A stretch of 64,000 bases of DNA from Oscillospiraceae bacterium (GTDB lineage Bacteria; Bacillota; Clostridia; Oscillospirales; Oscillospiraceae): assembly GCA_910574635.1 (NCBI GenBank), contig CAJTCG010000008.1, positions 124,001 through 188,000 of the forward strand, read 5' to 3'. Every line of letters starts with the position of its first letter. Position 1 is the stretch's first letter. Below the pieces are notes generated by a model that was given only the letters and a program-made list of their open reading frames with translations, did not search any database and was not told the DNA's origin. The position numbers and the translations under genes are program-made. Below, piece after piece: positions 47,969-58,002 of this stretch.

Positions 47969-47976
47969 CATACAAT
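47969..47976 (+). promoter_or_regulatory. Sigma-E-type -10 of the cotJ operon
   Basis: CATACAAT is an exact match to the sigma-E -10 consensus, 52 bases before cotJ; no clear -35 (kmATATT) at the right distance. cotJ is sigma-E dependent in B. subtilis. Confidence 0.5.
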
Positions 47977-48027: not shown

Positions 48028-48486
48028 ATGGAAAGACCTAATCAGACGCCGGCCGGTTCCTGCGGCGCGGGAATGGGCACACTCCCCGGCAATTGCGCCC
48101 CGCTGGCGTTTCCTTATATTCCGATGCAGGAGCAGAACCCTCCCCGCTTCAGCCGGGCGGAGGCCCTTCAGGCTGGCACGTTGTTTCCCGGTTTGGACCT
48201 GCCCTTTAAAGCGGCCATCCAGGCGAAAACTAAGCTGGCCAACACCGCCCTAGTGGAGCTAATGGCGCTGGATTTTGCCATCAAAGAGCTGAACCTGTAC
48301 CTGGACACCCACGCCAACGACCAGGAGGTTCTCCAGCTTTACTGGTCCTATATCAAGCTGGCCAAAGAGGGCCGGGAAAAATATGAGAAGATGTATGGCC
48401 CCCTGACCAGCACCGACCTGACCCCGGAGGACGGCTACGCCTGGCTCAAGGACCCGTGGCCCTGGGACGTAGGAGGGAATGACTGA
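48028..48486 (+). CDS. CotJA-CotJB fusion, spore coat
   Basis: A 152-residue single protein. Residues about 25-65 are CotJA (LAFPYIPMQEQNPPRFSRAE, GTLFPGLDLPF); residues about 70-150 are CotJB (LMALDFAIKELNLYLDTHAN, EKYEKMYGPLT, WLKDPWPWD). In B. subtilis these are separate cotJA and cotJB genes of a coat operon. Here no stop separates them. The stop overlaps cotJC by one base. Strong AAGGAGG. Confidence 0.85.
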   Translation: MERPNQTPAGSCGAGMGTLPGNCAPLAFPYIPMQEQNPPRFSRAEALQAGTLFPGLDLPFKAAIQAKTKLANTALVELMALDFAIKELNLYLDTHANDQEVLQLYWSYIKLAKEGREKYEKMYGPLTSTDLTPEDGYAWLKDPWPWDVGGND

Positions 48487-48908
48487 TGTTTGTATATGAG
48501 AAAAAGCTTCAATACCCGGTGAAGGTCAAGAACACCAATCCCAAGCTGGCAGCGGCCATTATCTCCCAATACGGCGGGCCTGACGGGGAGCTGGGGGCTT
48601 CCCTCCGGTATCTGAGCCAGCGCTATTCCATGCCCTATGCGGAGCTGAAGGGCCTGCTGACGGACATCGGCACGGAGGAGCTGGGGCATCTGGAGATGGT
48701 GGGCACTCTGGTCCACCAGCTGACCAGGAATCTCAGCGAGGAGCAGATTAAGGCCGCCGGTTTTGACGCCTACTTCGTGGACCATACCACCGGCGTGTTT
48801 CCACAGTTCGCTTCCGGTTTCCCCTGGTCTGCCGCTACCATGCAGGTAACCGGGGATGTCATTGGGGACTTGACAGAGGATTTGGCGGCGGATGGGGCGA
48901 TGGCGTAA
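48486..48908 (+). pseudogene. cotJC: cotJC 5' part, interrupted by mobile element
   Basis: Codes 138 genuine CotJC residues (manganese-catalase-like spore coat protein), including the metal-ligand motif TEELGH at 63-68, then two foreign codons and a stop. The C-terminal 64 residues with REIVHFQRFGE lie at 57769-57964. Joined at the GC core (48897-48898 / 57767-57768), the two parts give one 202-residue frame, the family length. Rather than a dead gene this may be a gene awaiting excision. Confidence 0.9.
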
Positions 48909-48915
48909 GGGCAAC
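48879..48915. other. attL of the cotJC element
   Basis: cotJC half GATTTGGCGGCGGATGGG, core GC (48897-48898), element arm GATGGCGTAAGGGCAAC (48899-48915). Confidence 0.75.
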
Positions 48916-48990
48916 AAGGCCGGAAAGCCTTGAAAACACTGGATTGTTGGTAGGATAAGCCTTTTCCGGCGGCGATGGTGTAAGGACAAC
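48896..48990 (+). repeat. 20-bp arm repeat at left end
   Basis: GGCGATGGCGTAAGGGCAAC (48896-48915) recurs with two changes at 48971-48990. The second copy may be an older or secondary recombinase site. Confidence 0.6.
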
Positions 48991-49008
48991 CTGTTAAAAT
49001 TTTTGATG

Positions 49009-49023
49009 GGACAAGCTGTTTCC
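49009..49023 (+). repeat. 15-bp motif GGACAAGCTGTTTCC
   Basis: Exact inverted copy at 55921-55935 and near copy at 55886-55900, flanking the recombinase promoter. Confidence 0.55.
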
Positions 49024-49052
49024 AATCCAATTTTTAGGAGAATTGACTTGCT

Positions 49053-49155
49053 ATGAAAATCGAATTGGACTATGTGAAAGTGGGCGATTACTAACCTCCC
49101 CGACCTGGTAGCTGAACGCCCACCTTTTGTAAGGCCCAAGTGGAGGAAATCATTT
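49053..49155 (+). pseudogene. TnpV-like remnant
   Basis: Starts MKIELDYVKVGDY with RBS TTAGGAG, then a stop; a +1 frame continues LPDLVAERPPFVRPKWRKS. The opening resembles the short TnpV proteins of Clostridia transposons. Truncated and frameshifted. Confidence 0.45.
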
Positions 49156-49189
49156 TTGCGGAATTGGTTTATAGCTAAATCAAATAAAG

Positions 49190-49225
49190 AGCAACGGAGA
49201 ACGTATATAAGCGTTCTCTGTTGCT
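49190..49225 (-). terminator. Terminator of the histidine kinase operon
   Basis: AGCAACGGAGAACG and CGTTCTCTGTTGCT form a 14-bp stem with one G-T pair; CTTTATTT follows on the minus strand. The rest of the 48909-49225 gap holds the element's left arm and the TnpV remnant. Confidence 0.7.
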
Positions 49226-50596
49226 TTATGGTTCCCCGCCGGGAAAGACTAAAACTGTCTGATACCCCTTTTGCGGTGCACTTTCAATTTCCATGATACC
49301 ATGATGCGCCTCAACAATCTGCCGAACCAACGGAACGCCTAAGCCGTGTCTCAGGTTCAATCTTTCATCGGTGCTTTCCAAATGATGCGCCGTTGCTCTT
49401 AATTTCTCCAGCTTCTCAGCGGACACGCCTATGCCGTCATCTGATACCATGGTGGTTATACCGTTTTCATTTCGCGCTACGGAAATAGAAATAACGCACC
49501 CTTTGGGATTGTGAATGACGCTGTTCTGAATCAAATTATACAGCGCGCGTTTCAGCAGGGCCTCGTCCCCCATGATGGACGCTGTTTCACTCTCTTGACT
49601 GGAATCGAACACAATTTGATACTGCGCCTCTAACCCGCTGTCCAAAAACTCACAGACGACTTGCCGCGCCAGCTCCACGAAATAGACCTTCTCCATCCGA
49701 AGGGGCTGCATGGAATACTCCAGCCTGGAGGTGAGGTTCAAATCGGAAATCAAGCTCCGCAGCTTCTCCCCCTGTCTGCGAATATAGGACGCCTGTTCAC
49801 GGGCGGAGATTGGAAGTGTTTGGTCATCCTCCAACTGTCCGGCAAAACCCAAAATCACCGAGAGGGGCGTCCGCACGTCATGGGAAACGCCGCTGATCCA
49901 GTCGGCGCGGGCGCTGTCCTTTTTGGCAATAAAAGCCCCTGCCTTGTTGAGCTGGCGGTTGATCTCCGCCAATTCTCCCTTCTCCGGGAGGCTGACTGGC
50001 TGGCCGGAGGAAACCGTTTCAATCCCCCGCAAAATAGGCGTGACCGCCTTTTCAACGTGCCGGGTGTTCTTCCAGATCAGCAGGACCACCACAATGATAT
50101 TGGTCAGAAAGACGGCAGCCAGTCCGACAAGCAGTTTTTTCGCATAGCCCTCACTGACGGAAAAGTAATACTTCGCCTGACTGCCCTTTTCGCCGCCTAC
50201 TACCAATAGCCCCTGGGGATGCTCCTGCACATAGACCGGATAATCCCCCAAATACCACCGGCTGAATGTTGCCACATCCGCTGCCGTGTACCGCCGGGGC
50301 AGTTCCTCCGGCAGTTTGCTCTGAAAAATGACCGTTCCGGTATCGTCCAAAACCATCGCCCAGGCGTGATGTTCTTCCAGAATTTCGTCCAGCACCCCAG
50401 CCGCCGTCAAATGTCCGGTTCCATCCAGAGTAATGCTGTCACAGATTTTGCTTATAGAGATTTCCGGCACCTCCGAGGTCTGCCAGGCCCAAATCAACAC
50501 AGAGAAAAGCAGGACAACATTGAGCAGCAGGAACAGCGCGATAATGCCCACCATGGATAAAAAGTATTTCCGAAAGAAGCGTTCCACAGGTTTCAT
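49226..50596 (-). CDS. Sensor histidine kinase
   Basis: A 456-residue two-helix membrane kinase: helices at about 12-36 and 154-174 flank a ~115-residue extracytoplasmic sensor; HAMP-like linker; H box SGVSHDVRTPLS; N box LIQNSVIHNP; G1 DDGIGV; G2 HGLGVPL. It overlaps the regulator gene by 4 bases and likely senses an antimicrobial peptide exported by the adjacent ABC system. Confidence 0.92.
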   Translation of the reverse strand: MKPVERFFRKYFLSMVGIIALFLLLNVVLLFSVLIWAWQTSEVPEISISKICDSITLDGTGHLTAAGVLDEILEEHHAWAMVLDDTGTVIFQSKLPEELPRRYTAADVATFSRWYLGDYPVYVQEHPQGLLVVGGEKGSQAKYYFSVSEGYAKKLLVGLAAVFLTNIIVVVLLIWKNTRHVEKAVTPILRGIETVSSGQPVSLPEKGELAEINRQLNKAGAFIAKKDSARADWISGVSHDVRTPLSVILGFAGQLEDDQTLPISAREQASYIRRQGEKLRSLISDLNLTSRLEYSMQPLRMEKVYFVELARQVVCEFLDSGLEAQYQIVFDSSQESETASIMGDEALLKRALYNLIQNSVIHNPKGCVISISVARNENGITTMVSDDGIGVSAEKLEKLRATAHHLESTDERLNLRHGLGVPLVRQIVEAHHGIMEIESAPQKGYQTVLVFPGGEP

Positions 50597-51288
50597 TTCT
50601 CCGGCTCCTTTACCACCAGCTTATATCCCAGGCCCTTCACCGTCAGGAGCGATACGGGCTTTGACGGATTTTCCTCGATCTTCTCCCGCAGATGCCGGAT
50701 ATGGGTCATCAGCGTTGTTTCATACCCCTGCCAGATTTCTCCGCACAGCGTTTGACAGAGAACGCCGATGGTGACGATCCGGCCCGCGTTCTCCGCCAGC
50801 TTTTCAAAAATGCTGTACTCCTTGGCGGTCAAGGGCGTCCGCTGTCCATCCCGGATAACCTCCGCCCGGTCTAAATCCACCGCGGCAGCGTTCAGCGTAA
50901 CAACCCGCTCTTTTTCAGGATAGGCCCGTTTCAAAATCGCCTGGACACGCAGCAGCAATTCCTTCGGGAGAAAAGGCTTGACCAGATAATCGTCCGCCCC
51001 CAGCTCGAACCCGGCAAAGCGGTCCTCGGCTTCCCCCTTCGCGGTGAGCATAAGAACGGGGACTTTGCTGACGGCCCGAATTTCCTGGAGCAGTTCAAAC
51101 CCGTCCATATCCGGCATTATCACATCCAGAACGATGATGCCGGGTGTTTTTTTCGCCATCACCGCCAGCACCTCTTGCCCGGAGGCCGCTGTTGTAATCT
51201 GTGTATATCCGGCGCTCTCAAAAATGGAGCGGATCATTGTCCGCAAATCTTTTTCATCGTCTACAACGAGGATTTCTCTGTCCAGCAT
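50593..51288 (-). CDS. OmpR-family response regulator
   Basis: 231 residues: receiver domain (EILVVDDEKDL, phospho-Asp in IIVLDVIMPDMDG, KPFLPKELLL) and winged-helix DNA-binding domain (LTAKEYSIFEKLAENAGRIV, YETTLMTHIRHLREKIE). ATG 51288 is 5 bases after GGAGGGG. It probably binds the CTCAAGG repeats in the divergent gap. Confidence 0.93.
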   Translation of the reverse strand: MLDREILVVDDEKDLRTMIRSIFESAGYTQITTAASGQEVLAVMAKKTPGIIVLDVIMPDMDGFELLQEIRAVSKVPVLMLTAKGEAEDRFAGFELGADDYLVKPFLPKELLLRVQAILKRAYPEKERVVTLNAAAVDLDRAEVIRDGQRTPLTAKEYSIFEKLAENAGRIVTIGVLCQTLCGEIWQGYETTLMTHIRHLREKIEENPSKPVSLLTVKGLGYKLVVKEPEK

Positions 51289-51355
51289 ATAAGCCCCTCC
51301 TGTCCGCACTCATTATAGCGCAGAAACTAAAAATTGTATATGCCGCCGGCGCAAT

Positions 51356-51410
51356 CTCAAGGTTATCTCAAGGTTGCCTCAAGGATCGCTCAAGGATGGT
51401 GTTGTATATT
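51356..51410 (+). promoter_or_regulatory. Four-repeat operator and promoter of the ABC cassette
   Basis: CTCAAGG at 51356, 51367, 51378 and 51389, exact 11-base period (one helical turn), ends at 51395. TATATT at 51405-51410 is a -10 lacking a -35, so activation by the OmpR-type regulator bound to the repeats is likely. Confidence 0.75.
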
Positions 51411-51434
51411 GACCCCATAAAGGAGGTAACCGCT

Positions 51435-52358
51435 ATGAGCGAAATCATCGTCGAAACAAAACAGCTGACCAAACAGTACGGGACCCAAAAGAGCGTGGCG
51501 GAGCTGAACATCCATGTTCAAAGAGGCCGCATCTATGGTCTGCTGGGCCGAAACGGAGCCGGAAAAACCACCACCATGAAGATGCTGCTGGGATTGACAC
51601 AGCCCACGTCAGGGAAGGTGACGATCTGGGGGAAGTCCCTGCTGGGCAATGAGAAGAAGCTGCTGCCCCGCATCGGCAGCCTGATTGAATCCCCCGGCTT
51701 CTATCCCAACCTGACGGGAACGGAGAACCTGCGCATTTTCGCCGCCCTGCGGGGACTGAAAAATCAGGGGGCTATTAAGAACGCCCTGGAACTGGTGGGC
51801 CTGCCCTACCGGGATAAAAAGCTCTTTTCTCAATACTCCCTGGGCATGAAGCAGCGGCTGGCCATCGCCCTGGCGGTGATGCACGACCCGGAATTGTTGA
51901 TCCTGGACGAGCCCATCAACGGCCTGGACCCCATCGGCATCGCGGAGGTGCGCTCCTTCATCCGGGCACTGTGCGACGAGCGGGGCAAGACCATCCTGAT
52001 CTCCAGCCACATTCTCTCCGAGGTGGCGCTGCTGGCAGACGACATCGGCATCATCGACCACGGTGTGCTGCTGGAGGAGGAGAGCCTTGCGGACCTGGAA
52101 GCCAAGAGCGACCGGTATATCCGCTTCACAGTCTCCGACACGGGGCGGGCGGCGGAGGTCTTGAAGGGTGTGTTCCACGAAAATCAGTTTACCGTACAGG
52201 ACGGCCATCATCTGCGGCTGGATTCTGCCGAGGTTCCTGCGGCAAGGATCGTTTCTGCCTTTGTGCAGCGCGGCCTGGAGGTGTCGGAGGCCGCGACCGT
52301 GGAGGAAAGCCTGGAGGATTACTTCAAGCGGGTGACCGGGGGTGAGGGGATTGCTTAA
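51435..52358 (+). CDS. ABC transporter ATPase, bacitracin/lantibiotic type
   Basis: A 307-residue BcrA/NukF-like ATPase: Walker A GRNGAGKTTTMKM, signature YSLGMKQRLAI, Walker B LLILDEPINGLDP, H-loop SSHILSE, plus the ~85-residue C-terminal extension of this group. With the two permeases it exports or expels peptide antibiotics. ATG 51435 follows AGGAGG. Confidence 0.92.
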   Translation: MSEIIVETKQLTKQYGTQKSVAELNIHVQRGRIYGLLGRNGAGKTTTMKMLLGLTQPTSGKVTIWGKSLLGNEKKLLPRIGSLIESPGFYPNLTGTENLRIFAALRGLKNQGAIKNALELVGLPYRDKKLFSQYSLGMKQRLAIALAVMHDPELLILDEPINGLDPIGIAEVRSFIRALCDERGKTILISSHILSEVALLADDIGIIDHGVLLEEESLADLEAKSDRYIRFTVSDTGRAAEVLKGVFHENQFTVQDGHHLRLDSAEVPAARIVSAFVQRGLEVSEAATVEESLEDYFKRVTGGEGIA

Positions 52359-53139
52359 GCTGATTTCCTGTGAGCTTCAGAAGCTGAAACGGAAGAAGTT
52401 CATTCCTTTTGTAATCCTCTCCGCGTTCCTGTTCCCGCCCCCGCTGGCACTGATGATGCTGACGCCCCGCATGATGGAGCGGTACGACACGAAAGCCGAG
52501 CTCTTTGACGACTTTTACCAGTTTGTCCTGGGCTATGGGGTGGAGCTGCTTCTGCCCTGCGTCATCGGCGTCATCGCCGCCATGCTGTTCTTTATGGAGC
52601 GGGACAACGACACCTTCAAAAACCTGCGGACCATCCCGGTGACCAGCACCCAGATGATTTTTGCCAAAATTATCGTTCTGTTTCTGTTCGGACTGATTTT
52701 CTGCCTGTCCACAGCCGCCGTCACCATTGTCTGCGGGGGCCTGATTGCCGAGGTGGGCGGACTGGGCTATAAGCTGTGGTTGGCGGTGGAGATGGGGATT
52801 TTCATCACAGCGGGCACTCTGCCGCTGGTGGTGCTGGTGGTCTTTTTCAGCAAGACCTATATCTTCTCCGTTCTGCTGTGCATTTTTTACAGCGTGTTAA
52901 GCCTGACTGCCGAAAGCAGTTTCGGTGTCCTGCCGAAGTTTCTGTGCTGGCTGATGCCGATTCCCCTCACAAACCTCTGGTGCGCGGGGGATATGGTTCG
53001 GCATGGCGTCAAGGGCAGCTTGGGGGAACTGCAATACCTGATTCCCTCAACAACGCAGACCGTCTTGATTTTGAGTGCAATGACTGTCCTGTCCATTCTG
53101 CTGATTGACCGGCTGTATAAAAAGAGAGGGGGGAATTGA
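52342..53139 (+). CDS. ABC permease, lantibiotic immunity type (1)
   Basis: 265 residues with six hydrophobic helices (e.g. LLLPCVIGVIAAMLFF, IIVLFLFGLIFCLSTAAVTIV). The N-terminal SCELQKLKRKKFI is characteristic of ABC-2/BcrB-like permeases. It overlaps the ATPase gene by 17 bases. Confidence 0.85.
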   Translation: MRGLLKLISCELQKLKRKKFIPFVILSAFLFPPPLALMMLTPRMMERYDTKAELFDDFYQFVLGYGVELLLPCVIGVIAAMLFFMERDNDTFKNLRTIPVTSTQMIFAKIIVLFLFGLIFCLSTAAVTIVCGGLIAEVGGLGYKLWLAVEMGIFITAGTLPLVVLVVFFSKTYIFSVLLCIFYSVLSLTAESSFGVLPKFLCWLMPIPLTNLWCAGDMVRHGVKGSLGELQYLIPSTTQTVLILSAMTVLSILLIDRLYKKRGGN

Positions 53140-53140
53140 A

Positions 53141-53920
53141 ATGCTGGTATTGATGAAAACCGAATTTTGGAAACTCAAACGGTATCACATGGTCTGGGCA
53201 GGGGGTTTCCTGATGCTGCTGTCCGTCCTGCTTACGGTTTTCTCCACCACCGCCCAGGATGGAAGTGTATGGACCTTCTCCTTTTTCGTGGAGCAGGTCC
53301 TGAAGAACAACATCACAACAATTTTCCCTATGTGCATCGCTTTGATTACCGGATATATCATCAGCCGGGAGGGAACGGACGACACGCTGAAAAACATTCT
53401 GACGGTTCCCCTGTCGTTTCCCGCTCTGCTGGCTGGCAAGCTGGCCGTCTGCGGGCTGCTCTCCCTGTTCCTGGGGATCGTCAGCACTGTGTTCACGGTG
53501 ATGGCATCCTTCCTCTTGGGCTTTCCTGGCGGTGATTTTCCGGTAATTATGCAGGCCGGGTTGCAGATCACGGCCAACTGTCTGTTCCTCTATATCGCGG
53601 TTCTGCCAATCATCGCCATCGCCGCCCGTATTCCAAACGGGCACTTGATTGGAGCGGTTGTCGCCTTTGCCTACGGCTACGGCGGGATGTTCGCGGCGGG
53701 GAGCATGACCTTGGCGAATTTGTATCCCGTGACCGCAAGCATGGGGCTGATTGGATACCGCAGCTATGATGCGGCTGTCCATTGGAATCCGCTGCTTTGT
53801 ATGTTCAGTTTGCTGGCCGCTCTGCTGATTGCCGCCGCTTTTGTGGCGACAGCAAAAAAAGGCGCGGCTCCAAAGACGACAAAAAAGCCCAAACGGGTCA
53901 TCACTAAAAAAGGTTGGTAA
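53141..53920 (+). CDS. ABC permease, lantibiotic immunity type (2)
   Basis: 259 residues, six helices, N-terminal MKTEFWKLKRYHMVW and the ISREGTDDTLKNILTVP cytosolic loop shared with the first permease (ERDNDTFKNLRTIPV). The pair forms a heterodimer typical of NukEG/EpiEG immunity systems. ATG 53141 is preceded by AGGGGGG. Confidence 0.85.
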   Translation: MLVLMKTEFWKLKRYHMVWAGGFLMLLSVLLTVFSTTAQDGSVWTFSFFVEQVLKNNITTIFPMCIALITGYIISREGTDDTLKNILTVPLSFPALLAGKLAVCGLLSLFLGIVSTVFTVMASFLLGFPGGDFPVIMQAGLQITANCLFLYIAVLPIIAIAARIPNGHLIGAVVAFAYGYGGMFAAGSMTLANLYPVTASMGLIGYRSYDAAVHWNPLLCMFSLLAALLIAAAFVATAKKGAAPKTTKKPKRVITKKGW

Positions 53921-53935
53921 GGGGTGTCAAACAAC

Positions 53936-54325
53936 ATGAAGAAAAAAGTGAAAATCACAATAGGAGTCGTTGCTGTCCTGCTCATTGGTCTGGCCGGCTT
54001 TTGCGCATGGTTCTTCTCCGGCTCCGGCAGCACCGAGTATTACGCCCAGATCGATAACACCAGGGTGGAACAGGTGGATTCTAACGGAGGCGTCATTAAC
54101 TTCAAAGGCAGCCTGCCCTATTCCTACACGCTGCTGTCCTATGACGAAAACGGGAGCGAAAAAGAGATCACCTTCGGGACATCCAGAGAACTGCGGGAGG
54201 GGGCCTTTATCCGTCTGACTGTCATGCCGGTCCGGGGCGTCCTGGACTGGAGCGAGGTACAGTATGACGAACTTCCGGAAGCAGTACAGAATCATTATTC
54301 TGCTCCGTCGGATGATGAAGGGTAA
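53936..54325 (+). CDS. YxeA-like (DUF1093) secreted protein
   Basis: A 129-residue protein: signal anchor (KITIGVVAVLLIGLAGFCAWFF), then a small beta domain (YYAQIDN, YTLLSYDENGSEKEITF, LREGAFIRLTV). In B. subtilis yxeA follows the peptide-sensing yxdJK-yxdLM system, the same context as here. ATG 53936 is preferred over GTG 53924. Confidence 0.75.
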   Translation: MKKKVKITIGVVAVLLIGLAGFCAWFFSGSGSTEYYAQIDNTRVEQVDSNGGVINFKGSLPYSYTLLSYDENGSEKEITFGTSRELREGAFIRLTVMPVRGVLDWSEVQYDELPEAVQNHYSAPSDDEG

Positions 54326-54370
54326 TTTCAGCGAATAACAGAAGCTCTATCAATTTAGGGCTTATTTTCT

Positions 54371-54394
54371 GCGGCGGTTTATTAAAGCCGCCGC
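54371..54394 (+). terminator. Possible terminator after the cassette
   Basis: GCGGCGG and CCGCCGC form a 7-bp stem extended by T-A pairs; the T run is weak. Confidence 0.5.
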
Positions 54395-54546
54395 CTTTCC
54401 ATTTGCTTTCTCGACATATAGGAGAATGCCGCCATGCGATTACAGGCAGATAGGCATTTGTCAAAAAAAGCCTGCCCCCTACAGCGGCGCACTCCTCCCA
54501 AGGTTGCGAAAATAGTCGTTCCTTGACGGCTCATAATGTTGCCCCC

Positions 54547-54584
54547 AGCACCCGAATGGCCTTGCACCGTCCGGGTGCTTTTTT
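54547..54584 (+). terminator. Terminator or leader attenuator
   Basis: AGCACCCG (54547-54554) with CGGGTGCT (54572-54579) and a run of six T. It precedes the sigma-like gene, so it may be a leader attenuator. Confidence 0.65.
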
Positions 54585-54627
54585 ATTTCCAGGCCAGCGA
54601 CACCGGCCCCGCTGGCGCTCCCCGCCC

Positions 54628-54660
54628 CCTCCGTTCAGACCCTAAAAATCTGAACGGAGG
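54628..54660 (+). promoter_or_regulatory. Hairpin masking the ribosome-binding site
   Basis: CCTCCGTTCAGA (54628-54639) pairs perfectly with TCTGAACGGAGG (54649-54660); the 3' arm contains the CGGAGG Shine-Dalgarno of the gene at 54669, which would be sequestered when folded. Confidence 0.6.
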
Positions 54661-54668
54661 AAAGGACG

Positions 54669-55175
54669 ATGGAAATTACCATCAACTACTATGGGCAAGC
54701 TGTGTCCGTGTCGTTGGAGGTCTATGAATATCTCACCCAGGCCGACCACAAGGCGGAGAACCTTGCCCACGAACAGAGGCGGCATTGGGACGGACACGAG
54801 TGTGACGAGTACATAATCAGTACCGAGGGCCGTTTGCCCTACTGCGCTACCCCGGAAGAATTGATCTGCCAGCGGGAAACGCTGGACGAAATTCTGGCGG
54901 TGCTGGCGCTCTGCACCGATACCCAGCGGGAGTGGTTCTTGCTCTATGCCCTGCATGATTTCAGCTATGCGGAGATTGCCGAGATGTGCGGCTGCTCCAA
55001 GTACGCTGTCCGCGACAGCATTATGGCGGTAAGAAAAATTTTTCAAACTTTTTCAGAAAGTGACCCCGCGATAGACCCTCTAAGTGGCTACCAGGTGAGG
55101 GGCGTTCGCTCCATCACCGGGAGGGACAAGCAGTTTCGGCTGTTTGTCCCTCCTGTCATTTCGGAGGTCTTATGA
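54669..55175 (+). CDS. Sigma-70 region-4-like regulatory protein of the element
   Basis: A 168-residue protein with a C-terminal sigma region 4 helix-turn-helix (TQREWFLLYALHDFSYAEIAEMCGCSKYAVRDSI) after an acidic N-terminal half. Such short sigma-like proteins are common control genes of Clostridia integrative elements and usually precede the recombinase. The last ~40 residues (after FQTFSES) look unlike the family and may follow a frameshift. Confidence 0.65.
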   Translation: MEITINYYGQAVSVSLEVYEYLTQADHKAENLAHEQRRHWDGHECDEYIISTEGRLPYCATPEELICQRETLDEILAVLALCTDTQREWFLLYALHDFSYAEIAEMCGCSKYAVRDSIMAVRKIFQTFSESDPAIDPLSGYQVRGVRSITGRDKQFRLFVPPVISEVL

Positions 55176-55699
55176 AAATCATCAACCTACGGCTCCATTA
55201 CCCCCACTGTCAGCAGGACAAGTTGGTAGAGGTCAGCGAGGAAGTCTTTGACGTGCTGTGCCAATCCGTCAGGGAAATGCGGAACCATGAGCGCCGCAAG
55301 CAGTATCACCGGGCCTACTACTCGCTGGATGCCTACGACTGGACGGAGAACTACGCTCTGGAACACAGCCCGTCCCCGTAGCAGCTTGTTATGCTGGCCG
55401 AGGAACAGGCCGAGCGTAACCGGCTGGCCGCTGCCTTGCGGGAGGCCCTTGCCTACGCCACCCCCACTCAGGCCCGCCGCATCTGTACCTACTACGTGGG
55501 CGGGCTGACCCAGCAGCAGATCGCAGATTGGGAGCGCGTCCACAACAGCAATGCCCGTATCTATGACCGGCTGTTGGAAATGTGCGCCCCCATCCGCTTC
55601 ACCGGCAAAAACTTCCGCAGGGCCACGGCACAAGACAAGCTGGCACGTCTGAAGAATCTGATGAAACCGCCCGCCCTCTTCCCTGCCGCAGATGACTAA
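55172..55699 (+). pseudogene. Second sigma-like gene split by an in-frame amber stop
   Basis: Two frames in the same phase, 55172-55381 (KIINLRLHYPHCQQDKLVEV) and 55391-55699, are divided only by TAG at 55379-55381. Homologues read PSPEQL or similar across this point, so a GAG or CAG to TAG change is likely. The second part has a helix-turn-helix (TQQQIADWERVHNSNARI). Whether suppression occurs is unknown. Confidence 0.55.
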
Positions 55700-55748
55700 T
55701 GGACAGGCAATTTCGCATAGGTTGTTGTGAAAGGCTGGGTGATGTGAT

Positions 55749-55883
55749 TTGCAGACACAGGAGCTATGCAAAAGCATTTTCAAAGATGGCTCCACGAAAA
55801 CAACAACAGAAATTTTCACGCACAAGCTGACCGACCTGATCAATCAGCTGGAAAAGGAAAAACAGGCCATAACCCCAAAATAA
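55749..55883 (+). CDS. 44-residue ORF before the recombinase
   Basis: A TTG-started frame (LQTQELCKSIFKDGSTKTT, then FTHKLTDLINQLEKEKQ) ending right at the recombinase promoter. Small helical proteins of this kind occur beside serine recombinases in Clostridia elements; a recombination-directionality role is possible but unproven. The rest of the 55700-55956 gap is promoter. Confidence 0.4.
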   Translation: MQTQELCKSIFKDGSTKTTTEIFTHKLTDLINQLEKEKQAITPK

Positions 55884-55884
55884 T

Positions 55885-55934
55885 GTGACAAGCTGTTTTC
55901 TGTGTGCTATACTGTAAGCAGGAAACAGCTTGTC
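55885..55934 (+). promoter_or_regulatory. Recombinase promoter inside an inverted repeat
   Basis: GTGACA (55885-55890) and TATACT (55908-55913) with 17-base spacer. GACAAGCTGTTT (55887-55898) and AAACAGCTTGTC (55923-55934) form a 12-bp perfect inverted repeat that brackets the -10, an operator or self-regulation candidate. Confidence 0.7.
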
Positions 55935-55956
55935 CTATCTCTGAGGAGATATGACT

Positions 55957-57510
55957 ATGAAAGCAGCAATTTACTGCCGTTTATCCGAGGAAGATAGAAA
56001 CAAGCAATTTGAAACCGACGACAGCAACAGCATTCAGAACCAAAAGGCTATGCTGTTGCAATATGCGATGGAACAAGGGTGGGAAGTTTATAACCTTTAC
56101 AGTGATGATGATTACACAGGTTCAGACCGCAGACGGCCCGAATTTAACCGCTTGCTGGAGGACGCCAAGGCTCACCGCTTTGACATCGTTCTCTGCAAGA
56201 CACAATCCCGTTTTACCCGTGAGCTGGAGCTGGTAGAAAAGTACATCCACGGCCTCTTCCCTATTTGGGGCATCCGCTTTGTCAGCATCGTGGACAACGC
56301 CGACACCGCCAACAAGGGCAATAAGAAGTCCCGGCAGATCAACGGGCTGGTGAACGAGTGGTATCTGGAGGATATGTCGGAGAACATCCGCAGCGTCCTT
56401 ACCAACCGGCGGCAGAACGGTTTTCACATTGGGGCCTTTGCCCTCTATGGCTACCAGAAAGACCCCGACCAGAAAGGCCATCTGATTATTGACGAGGAGG
56501 CCGCCGCCGTTGTCCGGGAGGTGTTTACCCTCTTTTCTCAGGGCTACGGTAAGACAGCCATCGCCCGGATGCTCAACGACCGTGGCATCCCCAATCCCAC
56601 CGAGTACAAGCGGCTCCACGGCCTACGCTACCAGCAGCCCAGGCGGAAAAACAGCACCCTTTGGAAGTATTTCGCCATCTCCGATATGCTCACCAATGAG
56701 ATTTATATCGGCAATATGGTACAAGGCAAATATGGCAGTGTGTCCTATAAGACCAAGCAGAACAAGCCCCGCCTTCAAAGTGAATGGTTTCGGGTGGAGG
56801 GAACCCATGAGGCAATTATAGAACGCTCCCTTTGGAATAGGGTGCAGTCCATGATTGCGGAGCGGGCCAAGCCCTTTGACTGCGGCACCGTGGGACTGTT
56901 CGCCAGGAAAGCAATCTGCGCCAACTGCGGCTATACCATGCGTTCCTCCAAAAATCGCGGGCGGCACTACCTCCAATGCTCTAACCGCCATGTGGCAAAG
57001 GACGCCTGTATTGGTTCCTTTATTTCCGTGGAAAAGCTGGAGCGGATGGTGATCGACGAGCTGAACCGACTGGCGGCGGCGTATCTGGACAAAGACGATC
57101 TGGAGCGGAGCATTGAGTTTTGCGAAAATCTGCAAGGTCAGAAAAAGCAGCTCCTGGACGCCCTCTCCGCCTATGAGAAGAAGATTGCCGAGTACACCAA
57201 GGGCCTGCGGGATTTATACATGGATAAGGTCAAGGGTCTGCTCAACGACAGTGACTTCTCCGCCCTCTCCAAAGAGTTTTCCTCCGAGAAGTCCCGACTG
57301 GAGCGTGTCCTGCTGGACGGTCAGCGTCAGCTTGCGGAATTGGAGGACAGGATTGCCGCAGGAGATAACCGAAAAGCCCTGGTGGAGCGGTATATAAACC
57401 TAGAACACTTGACACGGGAAATCGTAGAAATCCTCATCGACCACATCACTGTAGGCAAACGCATCCCTGGCACCCGTGACGTTCCCATTGAAATCCACTG
57501 GAATTTTTAA
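55957..57510 (+). CDS. Large serine recombinase
   Basis: A 517-residue integrase/excisionase. Resolvase catalytic domain with the active serine in AIYCRLSEEDRN and R in QSRFTR; Recombinase domain (GYQKDPDQKGHLIIDEEAA); zinc ribbon (CANCGYTMRSSKNRGRHYLQC); long coiled coil near 370-490 (YEKKIAEYTKGLRDLYMDKV). ATG 55957 is 8 bases from GAGGAG. It adjoins attR, the usual place, and should act on the attL/attR described here. Confidence 0.94.
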   Translation: MKAAIYCRLSEEDRNKQFETDDSNSIQNQKAMLLQYAMEQGWEVYNLYSDDDYTGSDRRRPEFNRLLEDAKAHRFDIVLCKTQSRFTRELELVEKYIHGLFPIWGIRFVSIVDNADTANKGNKKSRQINGLVNEWYLEDMSENIRSVLTNRRQNGFHIGAFALYGYQKDPDQKGHLIIDEEAAAVVREVFTLFSQGYGKTAIARMLNDRGIPNPTEYKRLHGLRYQQPRRKNSTLWKYFAISDMLTNEIYIGNMVQGKYGSVSYKTKQNKPRLQSEWFRVEGTHEAIIERSLWNRVQSMIAERAKPFDCGTVGLFARKAICANCGYTMRSSKNRGRHYLQCSNRHVAKDACIGSFISVEKLERMVIDELNRLAAAYLDKDDLERSIEFCENLQGQKKQLLDALSAYEKKIAEYTKGLRDLYMDKVKGLLNDSDFSALSKEFSSEKSRLERVLLDGQRQLAELEDRIAAGDNRKALVERYINLEHLTREIVEILIDHITVGKRIPGTRDVPIEIHWNF

Positions 57511-57526
57511 GGAGCATATAGACCCT

Positions 57527-57964
57527 ATGCAACCCAAAGAAGAATTTGAGCAAACCATTCAATCCATCGACCAGGCGTTAGGTGAAATTGAGCGTACCCT
57601 GGAGCAAATGCTGACCCTGGCCCAGCTGTCCGCCAGCGATTTGAACGTAGACCGGGAGGCTCTGCAAAAGACACTGGAACGCCTCCAGCGCAAGATTGAC
57701 CGCATCGCGGACACGATTTGGCGCCATTTTTCGCTGTTTTTTGCAAAAAGTTGTACTTTTGTGATTGCACCAGAGCAAAAAGCCCGCGTAACCTACGACA
57801 ACATCCTCCGCCTCTCCGACGACCCGGACGTCAGCGACGTCATCAAATTCCTCCGGGCCCGGGAAATTGTCCACTTCCAGCGCTTCGGCGAGGGCCTACG
57901 GTTAGCAAAGGACAAAATGAACGAGAAGAACGTTTACTATATGAATCCGGCTTTCGACAAGTAA
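57527..57964 (+). CDS. Hybrid ORF: element coiled-coil protein fused to CotJC C-terminus
   Basis: 145 codons. Residues 1-80 are element-encoded and helical (EEFEQTIQSIDQALGEIERT, REALQKTLERLQRKIDRIAD); from codon 81 (57767, the GC core) it is CotJC (PEQKARVTYDNILRLSDDPD, REIVHFQRFGE). The AAGGAG at the recombinase stop lies 12 bases upstream. It is created by integration; when excised, the element gene would read into the left arm instead. Confidence 0.7.
   Translation: MQPKEEFEQTIQSIDQALGEIERTLEQMLTLAQLSASDLNVDREALQKTLERLQRKIDRIADTIWRHFSLFFAKSCTFVIAPEQKARVTYDNILRLSDDPDVSDVIKFLRAREIVHFQRFGEGLRLAKDKMNEKNVYYMNPAFDK
57750..57785. other. attR of the cotJC element
   Basis: Element arm GTTGTACTTTTGTGATT (57750-57766), core GC (57767-57768), cotJC half ACCAGAGCAAAAAGCCC. 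Confidence 0.75.
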
Positions 57965-57967
57965 AGC

Positions 57968-58002
57968 AGAAAAGAGCGGCGGGAAACCCGCCGCTCTTTT
58001 CT
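57968..58002. terminator. Bidirectional terminator after cotJC
   Basis: AGAAAAGAGCGGCGGG (57968-57983) pairs perfectly with CCCGCCGCTCTTTTCT (57987-58002). Confidence 0.92.

What the first reader, a model, noticed from the sequence alone, without database searches (positions are those of the whole stretch)
48486..57964. Spore-coat gene cotJC split by a serine-recombinase element that could excise in frame
The N-terminal 138 residues of CotJC (with TEELGH) end at 48898 and the missing 64 residues (with REIVHFQRFGE) appear in the correct order and frame 8.87 kb away at 57769-57964. Between them lie a large serine recombinase next to the right end and cargo genes. Cutting at a GC dinucleotide present at both ends restores ...ADGA-PEQKAR..., 202 residues, the length of CotJC. 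Both halves look undamaged, so this resembles sigK/skin, spsM/SPbeta and spoVFB/vfbin, in which elements leave the mother-cell chromosome during sporulation. The recombinase has a vegetative-type promoter, so developmental control is not shown.
Basis: partly seen in the sequence, partly recalled or inferred. Interest (0 to 1): 0.93.

Follow-up and report, generated by a model that had tools for sequence, protein, structure and literature searches.

The report
Spore-coat gene assembled by DNA excision
In this Oscillibacter-like bacterium the spore-coat gene cotJC is cut in two by an 8.9-kb element carrying its own recombinase, which is predicted to cut the element out in the spore-making mother cell and make the gene whole, and recombinase-bearing elements split the same gene at four recurring places in many related bacteria.

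Summary
The split is real: cotJC lies in two pieces (48486-48892 and 57775-57964), the genome's only Mn-catalase-family matches. It is not an isolated case: 34 of 86 genus genomes have cotJC in pieces (both sides of a break found in 27), at least 61 of 300 drawn from the family and about 26 of 293 from the class show both sides, at four recurring sites. Large serine recombinases sort by site in a tree. Homologues of the window's (59% or more) occur in 15 of 300 family genomes, each time within 4.5 kb of a cotJC site-C junction. Just upstream of the recombinase is an unannotated 44-aa ORF, a candidate directionality factor, with a mother-cell-type -10 box at constrained spacing, as in an unrelated site-B lineage. 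Downstream pieces stay under purifying selection. Best reading: mobile elements that use cotJC as home and are excised in the mother cell. Excision itself was not observed.

The parts
47969..47976 (+). CATACAAT, sigma-E/K-type -10 box upstream of cotJAB-cotJC
   Evidence: position; mother-cell -10 similarity from passages of PMC3789822 and PMC4191935; the letters of the consensus are partly recalled
48028..48486 (+). fused cotJA-cotJB
   Evidence: Pfam CotJA 3.4e-12 and CotJB 1.8e-25 in one ORF; translation
48486..48892 (+). cotJC 5' piece (135 codons and two bases); reads on into the element to a stop at 48906-48908
   Evidence: PF05067 1.5e-36
48868..48917 (+). attL, core GA 48891-48892, then element arm TGGGGCGATGGCGTAAGGGCAAC
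   Evidence: inverted-repeat arms 15 of 25; similar arms in related elements
48893..57774 (.). intervening element, 8,882 bp
48971..48990 (+). second copy of the left arm (90% identical over 20 nt), possible relic of an earlier insertion
49010..49023 (+). GACAAGCTGTTTCC, exact copy of the operator-like half-site found around the recombinase promoter
49226..50596 (-). cargo: sensor histidine kinase
   Evidence: Pfam HisKA, HATPase_c
50593..51288 (-). cargo: response regulator
   Evidence: Pfam Response_reg, Trans_reg_C
51435..52358 (+). cargo: ABC transporter ATPase; best NCBIfam model is lantibiotic protection, below its cut-off
52342..53139 (+). cargo: ABC-2 permease
   Evidence: Pfam ABC2_membrane_4
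53141..53920 (+). cargo: ABC-2 permease
   Evidence: Pfam ABC2_membrane_4
53924..54325 (+). cargo: YxeA-family protein
   Evidence: TIGR01655 over cut-off
54669..55175 (+). sigma-70 region-4 / HTH protein
   Evidence: Pfam Sigma70_r4_2, UPF0122
55391..55699 (+). small ORF, weak phage-family matches only
55716..55723 (+). CATAGGTT, mother-cell-type -10 box, 33 nt before the TTG of the small ORF
   Evidence: control
55749..55883 (+). 44-aa ORF (TTG start), candidate recombination directionality factor; no Pfam, PHROG or NCBIfam match
   Evidence: motif directly upstream of the recombinase in 14 of 24 rows
55885..55913 (+). sigma-A-type promoter of the recombinase (GTGACA, 17 nt, TATACT) inside an inverted repeat (55887-55900 and 55921-55934)
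55951..57510 (+). large serine recombinase, 519 aa
   Evidence: Pfam and PHROG integrase; site-C clade in the tree
57527..57964 (+). ORF that runs in frame through attR into the cotJC 3' piece
   Evidence: not possible in some relatives
57748..57792 (+). attR: arm GTTGTACTTTTGTGATTGCACCA, core GA 57773-57774, then cotJC
57775..57964 (+). cotJC 3' piece: one base, 62 codons and the stop
   Evidence: PF05067 1.3e-9
57970..58000 (.). 14-bp perfect inverted repeat after cotJC, terminator-like

Best explanation
cotJC is split at one recurring codon by an 8,882-bp element with its own large serine recombinase, and the element is likely cut out between two GA cores in the sporulating mother cell, which would restore a 198-residue CotJC. 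Shown here: the split, the shared GA and inverted-repeat attP arms, the intact homologues, the recombinase family tied to this site, the small ORF with a mother-cell-type -10 box. Inferred: the 44-aa ORF is the recombination directionality factor; sigma-E or sigma-K makes it only in the mother cell, where cotJ is also transcribed; with it the vegetatively expressed recombinase turns attL x attR into attB plus a circle. As the mother-cell chromosome is not inherited, the element stays in the germ line and costs the host little. The element also moves between species: the window's recombinase has dS 0.20 to that of G048 although the two cotJC genes have dS about 1.2.
For: Only PF05067 pieces in the genome. 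attP arms symmetric about GA. Genus tally of 86: 34 in pieces (27 with both sides of a break, 7 with one piece running into other DNA), 4 with a site-D-type end, 28 intact, 20 with none found. Tree of 78 recombinases: site labels need 3 changes, the minimum (shuffled mean 39.1, 0 of 200 as low); sites A, C, D one clade each, B two. Specificity without regard to cotJC: 15 of 300 family genomes, the window's included, have a homologue at E 1e-150 (all 59% or more); 13 have a cotJC site-C piece on the same short fetched stretch, two (G083, G124) have it 4.3-4.5 kb away. Purifying selection: downstream piece G138/G281 dN 0, dS 0.46; G173/G296 0 and 0.51; G235/G160 0.022 and 0.86, in pairs whose recombinase dS (0.65-0.90) is like the hosts'. 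CATANNNT upstream of the small ORF in 9 of 10 independent site-C and 7 of 9 site-B regions (shuffle means 0.83 and 0.42, none of 2000 as high); 17 of 1017 other ORFs have it at 25-36 nt. Same plan as skin-Cd and SPbeta: vegetatively expressed recombinase, mother-cell RDF. The genome's sigK is itself in two pieces, one beside a serine recombinase. Contig ends lie within 60 nt of the core in 7 of 70 junction arms, 0.25 expected.
Against: No excised form was found. With the GA join: none in viral contigs, none in the 322 loci then fetched; a related attP core gave 29 viral hits, all without the outer arms, so chance. No -35 box fits sigma-E or sigma-K consistently. The small-ORF motif was missing in 10 of 24 rows, and no such gene was found for sites A and D, where many fetched stretches are short. 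The window's element is a recent arrival relative to G048 and G365, so its intact halves alone prove little. The recombinase carries DUF4368, a domain said to mark multi-targeting recombinases (PMC10083194, passages). Some pairs have higher dN/dS, about 0.2 (G083/G124, G048/G031). Contig ends at junctions may reflect strain mixtures. Twenty-eight genus genomes do without an element.
Confidence: 0.75

Rival explanations
1. Ordinary site-specific mobile elements use conserved cotJC codons as attB and simply knock the gene out; there is no programmed excision, and occasional loss restores the gene.
For: Some elements transfer horizontally (recombinase dS 0.20-0.34 against cotJC dS 1.2-2.6 for G000/G048 and G000/G365); cargo is an ABC transporter and two-component system; many genomes lack them; IMG/VR holds relatives with cotJC pieces; no excised form was found.
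Against: Downstream pieces without a start of their own stay under purifying selection in pairs with recombinases about as old as the hosts; among the fetched loci the only stop inside a piece is in an extra copy in G075; mother-cell-type -10 box before a small gene in two recombinase lineages; two or three insertions in one gene with the pieces still in frame.
Confidence: 0.19
2. cotJC is dispensable and the split copies are decaying pseudogenes.
For: PMC11222575 (passage) reports from other work that insertional mutants of two C. difficile cotJC-type genes had lower catalase activity but no significant coat defect.
Against: dN/dS on downstream pieces is 0 to about 0.05 in the closer pairs and about 0.2 at most in the pairs where dS could be estimated; frame kept across many genera.
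Confidence: 0.03
3. The two pieces are made as separate chains that assemble, or the 3' piece is made as a fusion with the upstream ORF, so no DNA joining is needed.
For: In the window the 3' piece is in frame with an ORF starting at 57527.
Against: In G032 and G078 the end of the recombinase lies about 25 nt before the junction, leaving no room for such a fusion start.
Confidence: 0.03

Closest known systems
skin of Clostridioides difficile (in sigK; recombinase CD1231, RDF CD1234)
   Same: Large serine recombinase, sigma-A promoter for it, separate small gene with a mother-cell promoter, rebuilding of a mother-cell gene (PMC5025042, passages).
   Different: Target is cotJC; the small ORF (44 aa) sits directly upstream of the recombinase and shows no family match; several element lineages share one gene.
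SPbeta in spsM of Bacillus subtilis (SprA, SprB)
   Same: sprB has a perfect sigma-E/K -10 with an imperfect -35 and a start site 20 nt before the start codon (PMC4191935, passages), much like the small ORFs here.
   Different: SPbeta is a phage; no phage structural gene was recognised among the window-element proteins searched.
gin in gerE of Bacillus cereus ATCC10987
   Same: Non-prophage intervening element excised by a serine recombinase plus an extra factor (PMC5595907, passages).
   Different: gin is 28.6 kb with three recombinases, in another gene.
yin in yabG of Clostridium botulinum V73
   Same: Element in a sporulation protease gene with serine recombinase and a possible SigK promoter before a small putative RDF (PMC10747680, passages).
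   Different: Reported as unique to one strain; the cotJC elements recur at the same sites over many genera.
vfbin in spoVFB of Bacillus weihenstephanensis
   Same: Sporulation gene interrupted by an element (named in PMC10747680).
   Different: Only that mention was seen.

Membership tests
Sporulation-gene intervening elements (skin, SPbeta/spsM, vfbin, gin, yin) | Lies inside a sporulation gene and splits its reading frame | tested here: met
   intact relatives
Sporulation-gene intervening elements (skin, SPbeta/spsM, vfbin, gin, yin) | Encodes a large serine recombinase | tested here: met
Sporulation-gene intervening elements (skin, SPbeta/spsM, vfbin, gin, yin) | Excision would restore the frame of the uninterrupted gene | tested here: met
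   GA join 198 aa, 196/198 to intact relative
Sporulation-gene intervening elements (skin, SPbeta/spsM, vfbin, gin, yin) | Carries an RDF | tested here: inconclusive
   conserved 44-aa ORF, function not tested
Sporulation-gene intervening elements (skin, SPbeta/spsM, vfbin, gin, yin) | Mother-cell control of excision | tested here: inconclusive
   -10 box statistics only; no -35 match
Sporulation-gene intervening elements (skin, SPbeta/spsM, vfbin, gin, yin) | Excised circle and joined gene in sporulating cells | not testable with these tools
   no reads at hand; GA-join attP not in viral contigs or fetched loci
Sporulation-gene intervening elements (skin, SPbeta/spsM, vfbin, gin, yin) | Prophage-like content (listed as a common feature in PMC10747680; gin lacks it) | tested here: not met
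   cargo: two-component system, ABC transporter, HTH proteins; no structural phage family among the proteins searched

The most novel reading that the evidence does not exclude
cotJC is a docking gene of the Clostridia: at least five recombinase lineages own four sites in it, up to three elements occupy one copy at once, and each sporulating mother cell splices the gene together at DNA level, piece by piece, under small mother-cell-specific directionality factors; in one genome the insert has even lost its recombinase, which stands alone elsewhere and would act in trans.
Probability: 0.55. Interest if true: 0.95.

Novelty: new variant of a known kind. Interest (0 to 1): 0.9.

Why it matters
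The sporulation-gene rearrangements seen in the papers consulted are single elements in single genes. Here one coat gene is hit again and again, at four places, by recombinase lineages that are each faithful to their site, over many genera of Clostridia. That makes the choice of mother-cell genes as a safe harbour testable, offers matched sets of recombinases, att sites and candidate directionality factors, and means that cotJC will be missed or called truncated in many genomes. Searches of the held paper library for cotJC with 'intervening element' (none), 'recombinase' (8 papers) and 'interrupted' (2 papers) listed no title or abstract that reports it; of these I opened only PMC11222575, by passage. 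Most subscription papers are not held.

Tried and rejected
Excised forms: GC-join pattern in viral contigs, none; GC-join 120-mer in seven genomes, only the halves at their junctions plus short partial hits; a pattern search in fetched loci, none; GA-join patterns, none in viral contigs or 322 loci; a 17-base core of a related attP gave 29 viral hits, none with the outer arms or a recombinase or cotJC match. Phage origin: all 697 phage records matched are under 60% identical; of 10 IMG/VR loci with related recombinases 6 carry cotJC pieces. Small-ORF clustering over all frames gave mostly shadow ORFs and was redone with upstream ORFs only. Class list: 30 of 42 re-examined genomes counted with both sides of a break; four (G436, G591, G607, G651) have adjoining or overlapping pieces, so frameshifts, leaving about 26. 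Of 79 family genomes with partial matches only, 54 show both sides of a site, 20 one side, 5 neither; 21 further family genomes were re-examined and 7 added. Genomes with a full-length and no second match were not examined further, so these are lower bounds; genus members among the 300 are not in the 61. In one search the cotJAB query was read in a wrong frame and the DNA comparison used the GC join; neither is used. Stops flagged for G108, G122, G226, G271 and G292 were not looked into. Dropped before the promoter count: four near-identical upstreams and all elements without the small-ORF motif. Dropped from the tree: six loci fetched twice and one recombinase over 2.5 kb from a junction; L061 was labelled A by hand. 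L047 and L054 were left out of the contig-end count.
Full report
OBSERVATION. The window lies in a 4.48-Mb, 99-contig genome. The cotJ locus reads cotJA-cotJB fusion, then cotJC, flanked on one side by a cwlD-like amidase and a radA-like gene and on the other by ligA and yunB (cwlD and radA are names given from domain content and memory). cotJC breaks off after 135 codons and two bases; the rest lies 8.9 kb away. The two pieces are the only PF05067 matches of the genome at E 0.001.

THE JUNCTION. All 110 uninterrupted matches found in fetched loci read EDLAAEQKA, so that join would leave four extra residues. Both ends share GA at the Glu codon. Joined there, the gene has 597 nt and 198 aa, with 196 of 198 residues equal to the intact gene of L089/G037. 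A GC in an earlier Ala codon is also shared and would give 198 aa, but with a Pro that the intact matches do not have. The circle formed at GA has arms in inverted repeat around it: 15 of 25 in the window (random pairs mean 6.4, P 0.0005), 12 to 23 of 25 in 18 other site-C elements; 25 pairs were tried and 7, the window among them, were not scored because the search pattern failed. This fits the attP of a large serine recombinase.

ONE OF MANY. PF05067 over 86 genomes of the genus shows pieces ending and starting at recurrent positions. After fetching the DNA, 34 genomes have cotJC in pieces (27 with both sides of a break, 7 with one piece), 4 end at site D, 28 are intact and 20 give none, many of these incomplete. 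Four sites appear, in residues of the 202-aa join used as query: A about 30, B about 63, C about 137 (the window), D about 178. Several genes carry more than one element: B+C in G031, G048, G071; A+D in G018; B+D in G019 and G022; C+D in G047 and G078; A+B+D in G063. In 300 genomes drawn from the family, 79 outside the genus had only partial matches; 54 of these and 7 of 21 others re-examined show both sides of site A, B or C. In 293 genomes of the class the same positions recur in other families; 30 of 42 re-examined show both sides, four of them frameshifts. G518 has breaks at A, B and C. In the single-contig genome G498 three pieces lie in order on one strand with a serine recombinase in each gap.

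RECOMBINASES FOLLOW THE SITE. Of 85 recombinase ORFs assigned to the nearest junction, 77 lie within 1.5 kb and 55 within 60 bp of the aligned piece (79, 71 and 50 without loci fetched twice). A maximum-likelihood tree of 78 needs 3 changes of site label, the least possible (shuffled mean 39.1, 0 of 200 as low); A (21), C (19) and D (7) are one clade each, B is two (24 and 7); the program warns of long branches that meet. Site-B recombinases of other families match the same two B clades at about 46-65% identity, while two site-A ones match none closely, so a further lineage is likely. Searching the window's recombinase without regard to cotJC: in the genus, 9 genomes have a homologue of 59% or more, all with site-C pieces; the next best is 46%. 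In G031 it lies on a contig not joined to the cotJC pieces. In 300 family genomes 15 have one at 59% or more: 13 with a site-C piece on the same fetched stretch, two with it 4.3-4.5 kb away. G033 is odd: its 2.33-kb insert at site C holds only a hybrid kinase gene, and its recombinase (58% by tblastn) stands alone on another contig among metabolic genes. DUF4368, present in the window's recombinase, is said to mark multi-targeting recombinases (PMC10083194, passages); the site-C family does not behave so in these genomes.

MOBILITY AND SELECTION. The window's recombinase differs from that of G048 by dS 0.20 and of G365 (another genus) by 0.34, while the cotJC 5' pieces differ by 1.2 and 2.6: the element travels. 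To G047 the two values are close (0.49 and 0.61). In other pairs recombinase and host gene are of like age (G138/G281 0.90 against 0.46-0.55; G173/G296 0.73 against 0.51-0.97; G235/G160 0.65 against 0.86; G341/G249 0.73 against 0.44-0.78), and there the downstream piece has dN 0 to 0.022. More distant pairs show higher dN (G335/G159 0.20 at dS 2.2, G083/G124 0.17 at 0.82, G048/G031 0.19 at 0.97). Many dS values are near saturation. In the scan of fetched loci stops appear in five: in four at or past the junction, one (L047) is a real stop in an extra copy in G075.

TIMING. Directly upstream of the site-C recombinase is a 44-aa ORF (window 55749-55883). A motif search found it in 14 of 24 rows. 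A search of 5.8 billion proteins gave eight matches, and Pfam, PHROGs and NCBIfam none. A different small ORF family precedes site-B recombinases in 12 elements. Upstream of these starts sits CATANNNT: 9 of 10 independent site-C regions (seven at 27-35 nt) and 7 of 9 site-B regions (28-30 nt); letter shuffles average 0.83 and 0.42 and none of 2000 reaches it. Among 1017 other ORFs 17 have it at 25-36 nt and 88 anywhere in 90 nt. Sigma-E and sigma-K share their -10 and differ at -35 (ATA, AC; PMC3789822, passages); I could not assign a -35. cotJAB itself has CATACAAT at 47969. In C. difficile skin the recombinase is sigma-A-driven and the RDF sigma-E/SpoIIID-driven (PMC5025042, passages); in SPbeta sprB has a perfect -10 and imperfect -35 (PMC4191935, passages). 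The window repeats this plan. Sites A and D gave no such signal at fixed spacing, many of their stretches being short.

SUPPORT FROM ASSEMBLIES AND THE OWN GENOME. Of 70 junction arms in genus genomes, 7 have a contig end within 60 nt of the core (0.25 expected) and 10 within 150 nt (0.62 expected); in G049 both contigs end at the site-A core. A mixture of joined and split molecules would do this; so would mixed strains. The window's genome also has sigK in two pieces on two contigs, the 3' piece about 0.5 kb from a serine recombinase. No excised circle or joined cotJC was found: the first attP searches used the wrong (GC) join; with the GA join, viral contigs and 322 fetched loci gave none, and whole genomes could not be searched again.

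VERDICT. A new and much enlarged case of intervening elements in a sporulation gene. Shown: anatomy, recurrence, specificity, selection. Predicted: function of the 44-aa ORF, mother-cell timing, excision. On checking, confidence was lowered by 0.01 because the early attP searches turned out not to test the GA circle and the later ones found none.

Noticed in passing
G000:C11:39748-40239 (L280) and G000:C24:21799-21978 (L288): sigK of the window's own genome is also in two pieces, the 3' piece near a serine recombinase; G001, G008 and G031 show split sigK too, and partial matches in the genus point to two different sigK positions.
   Followed up: partly
L075 (G033:C29) and L256 (G033:C66): A 2.33-kb site-C insert with only a hybrid histidine kinase gene and attP arms matching at 20 of 25; the related recombinase is a stand-alone gene on another contig, a possible trans system.
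   Followed up: partly
window 48971-48990: Second copy of the element's left arm 75 bp further in, perhaps the scar of an earlier insertion.
   Followed up: no
window 49010, 55887, 55921: Three copies of GACAAGCTGTTTCC (one with a mismatch), two forming an inverted repeat over the recombinase promoter: operator-like.
   Followed up: partly
L063 (G082:C1): In this two-contig genome the site-A pieces lie on opposite strands 10 kb apart, so an inversion seems to have happened at the split gene.
   Followed up: no
window 48028-48486: cotJA and cotJB are fused into one gene.
   Followed up: no
L047 (G075:C9): Extra partial cotJC copy with an in-frame stop, a real remnant.
   Followed up: no
G409:C1:2541492 and 2698414: Site-B pieces 157 kb apart in a single-contig genome, with a recombinase beside the 3' piece.
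   Followed up: partly
L313-L318 (IMG/VR): Contigs filed as viral carry site-C-type recombinases together with pieces of cotJC, so host coat-gene fragments sit in viral collections.
   Followed up: partly
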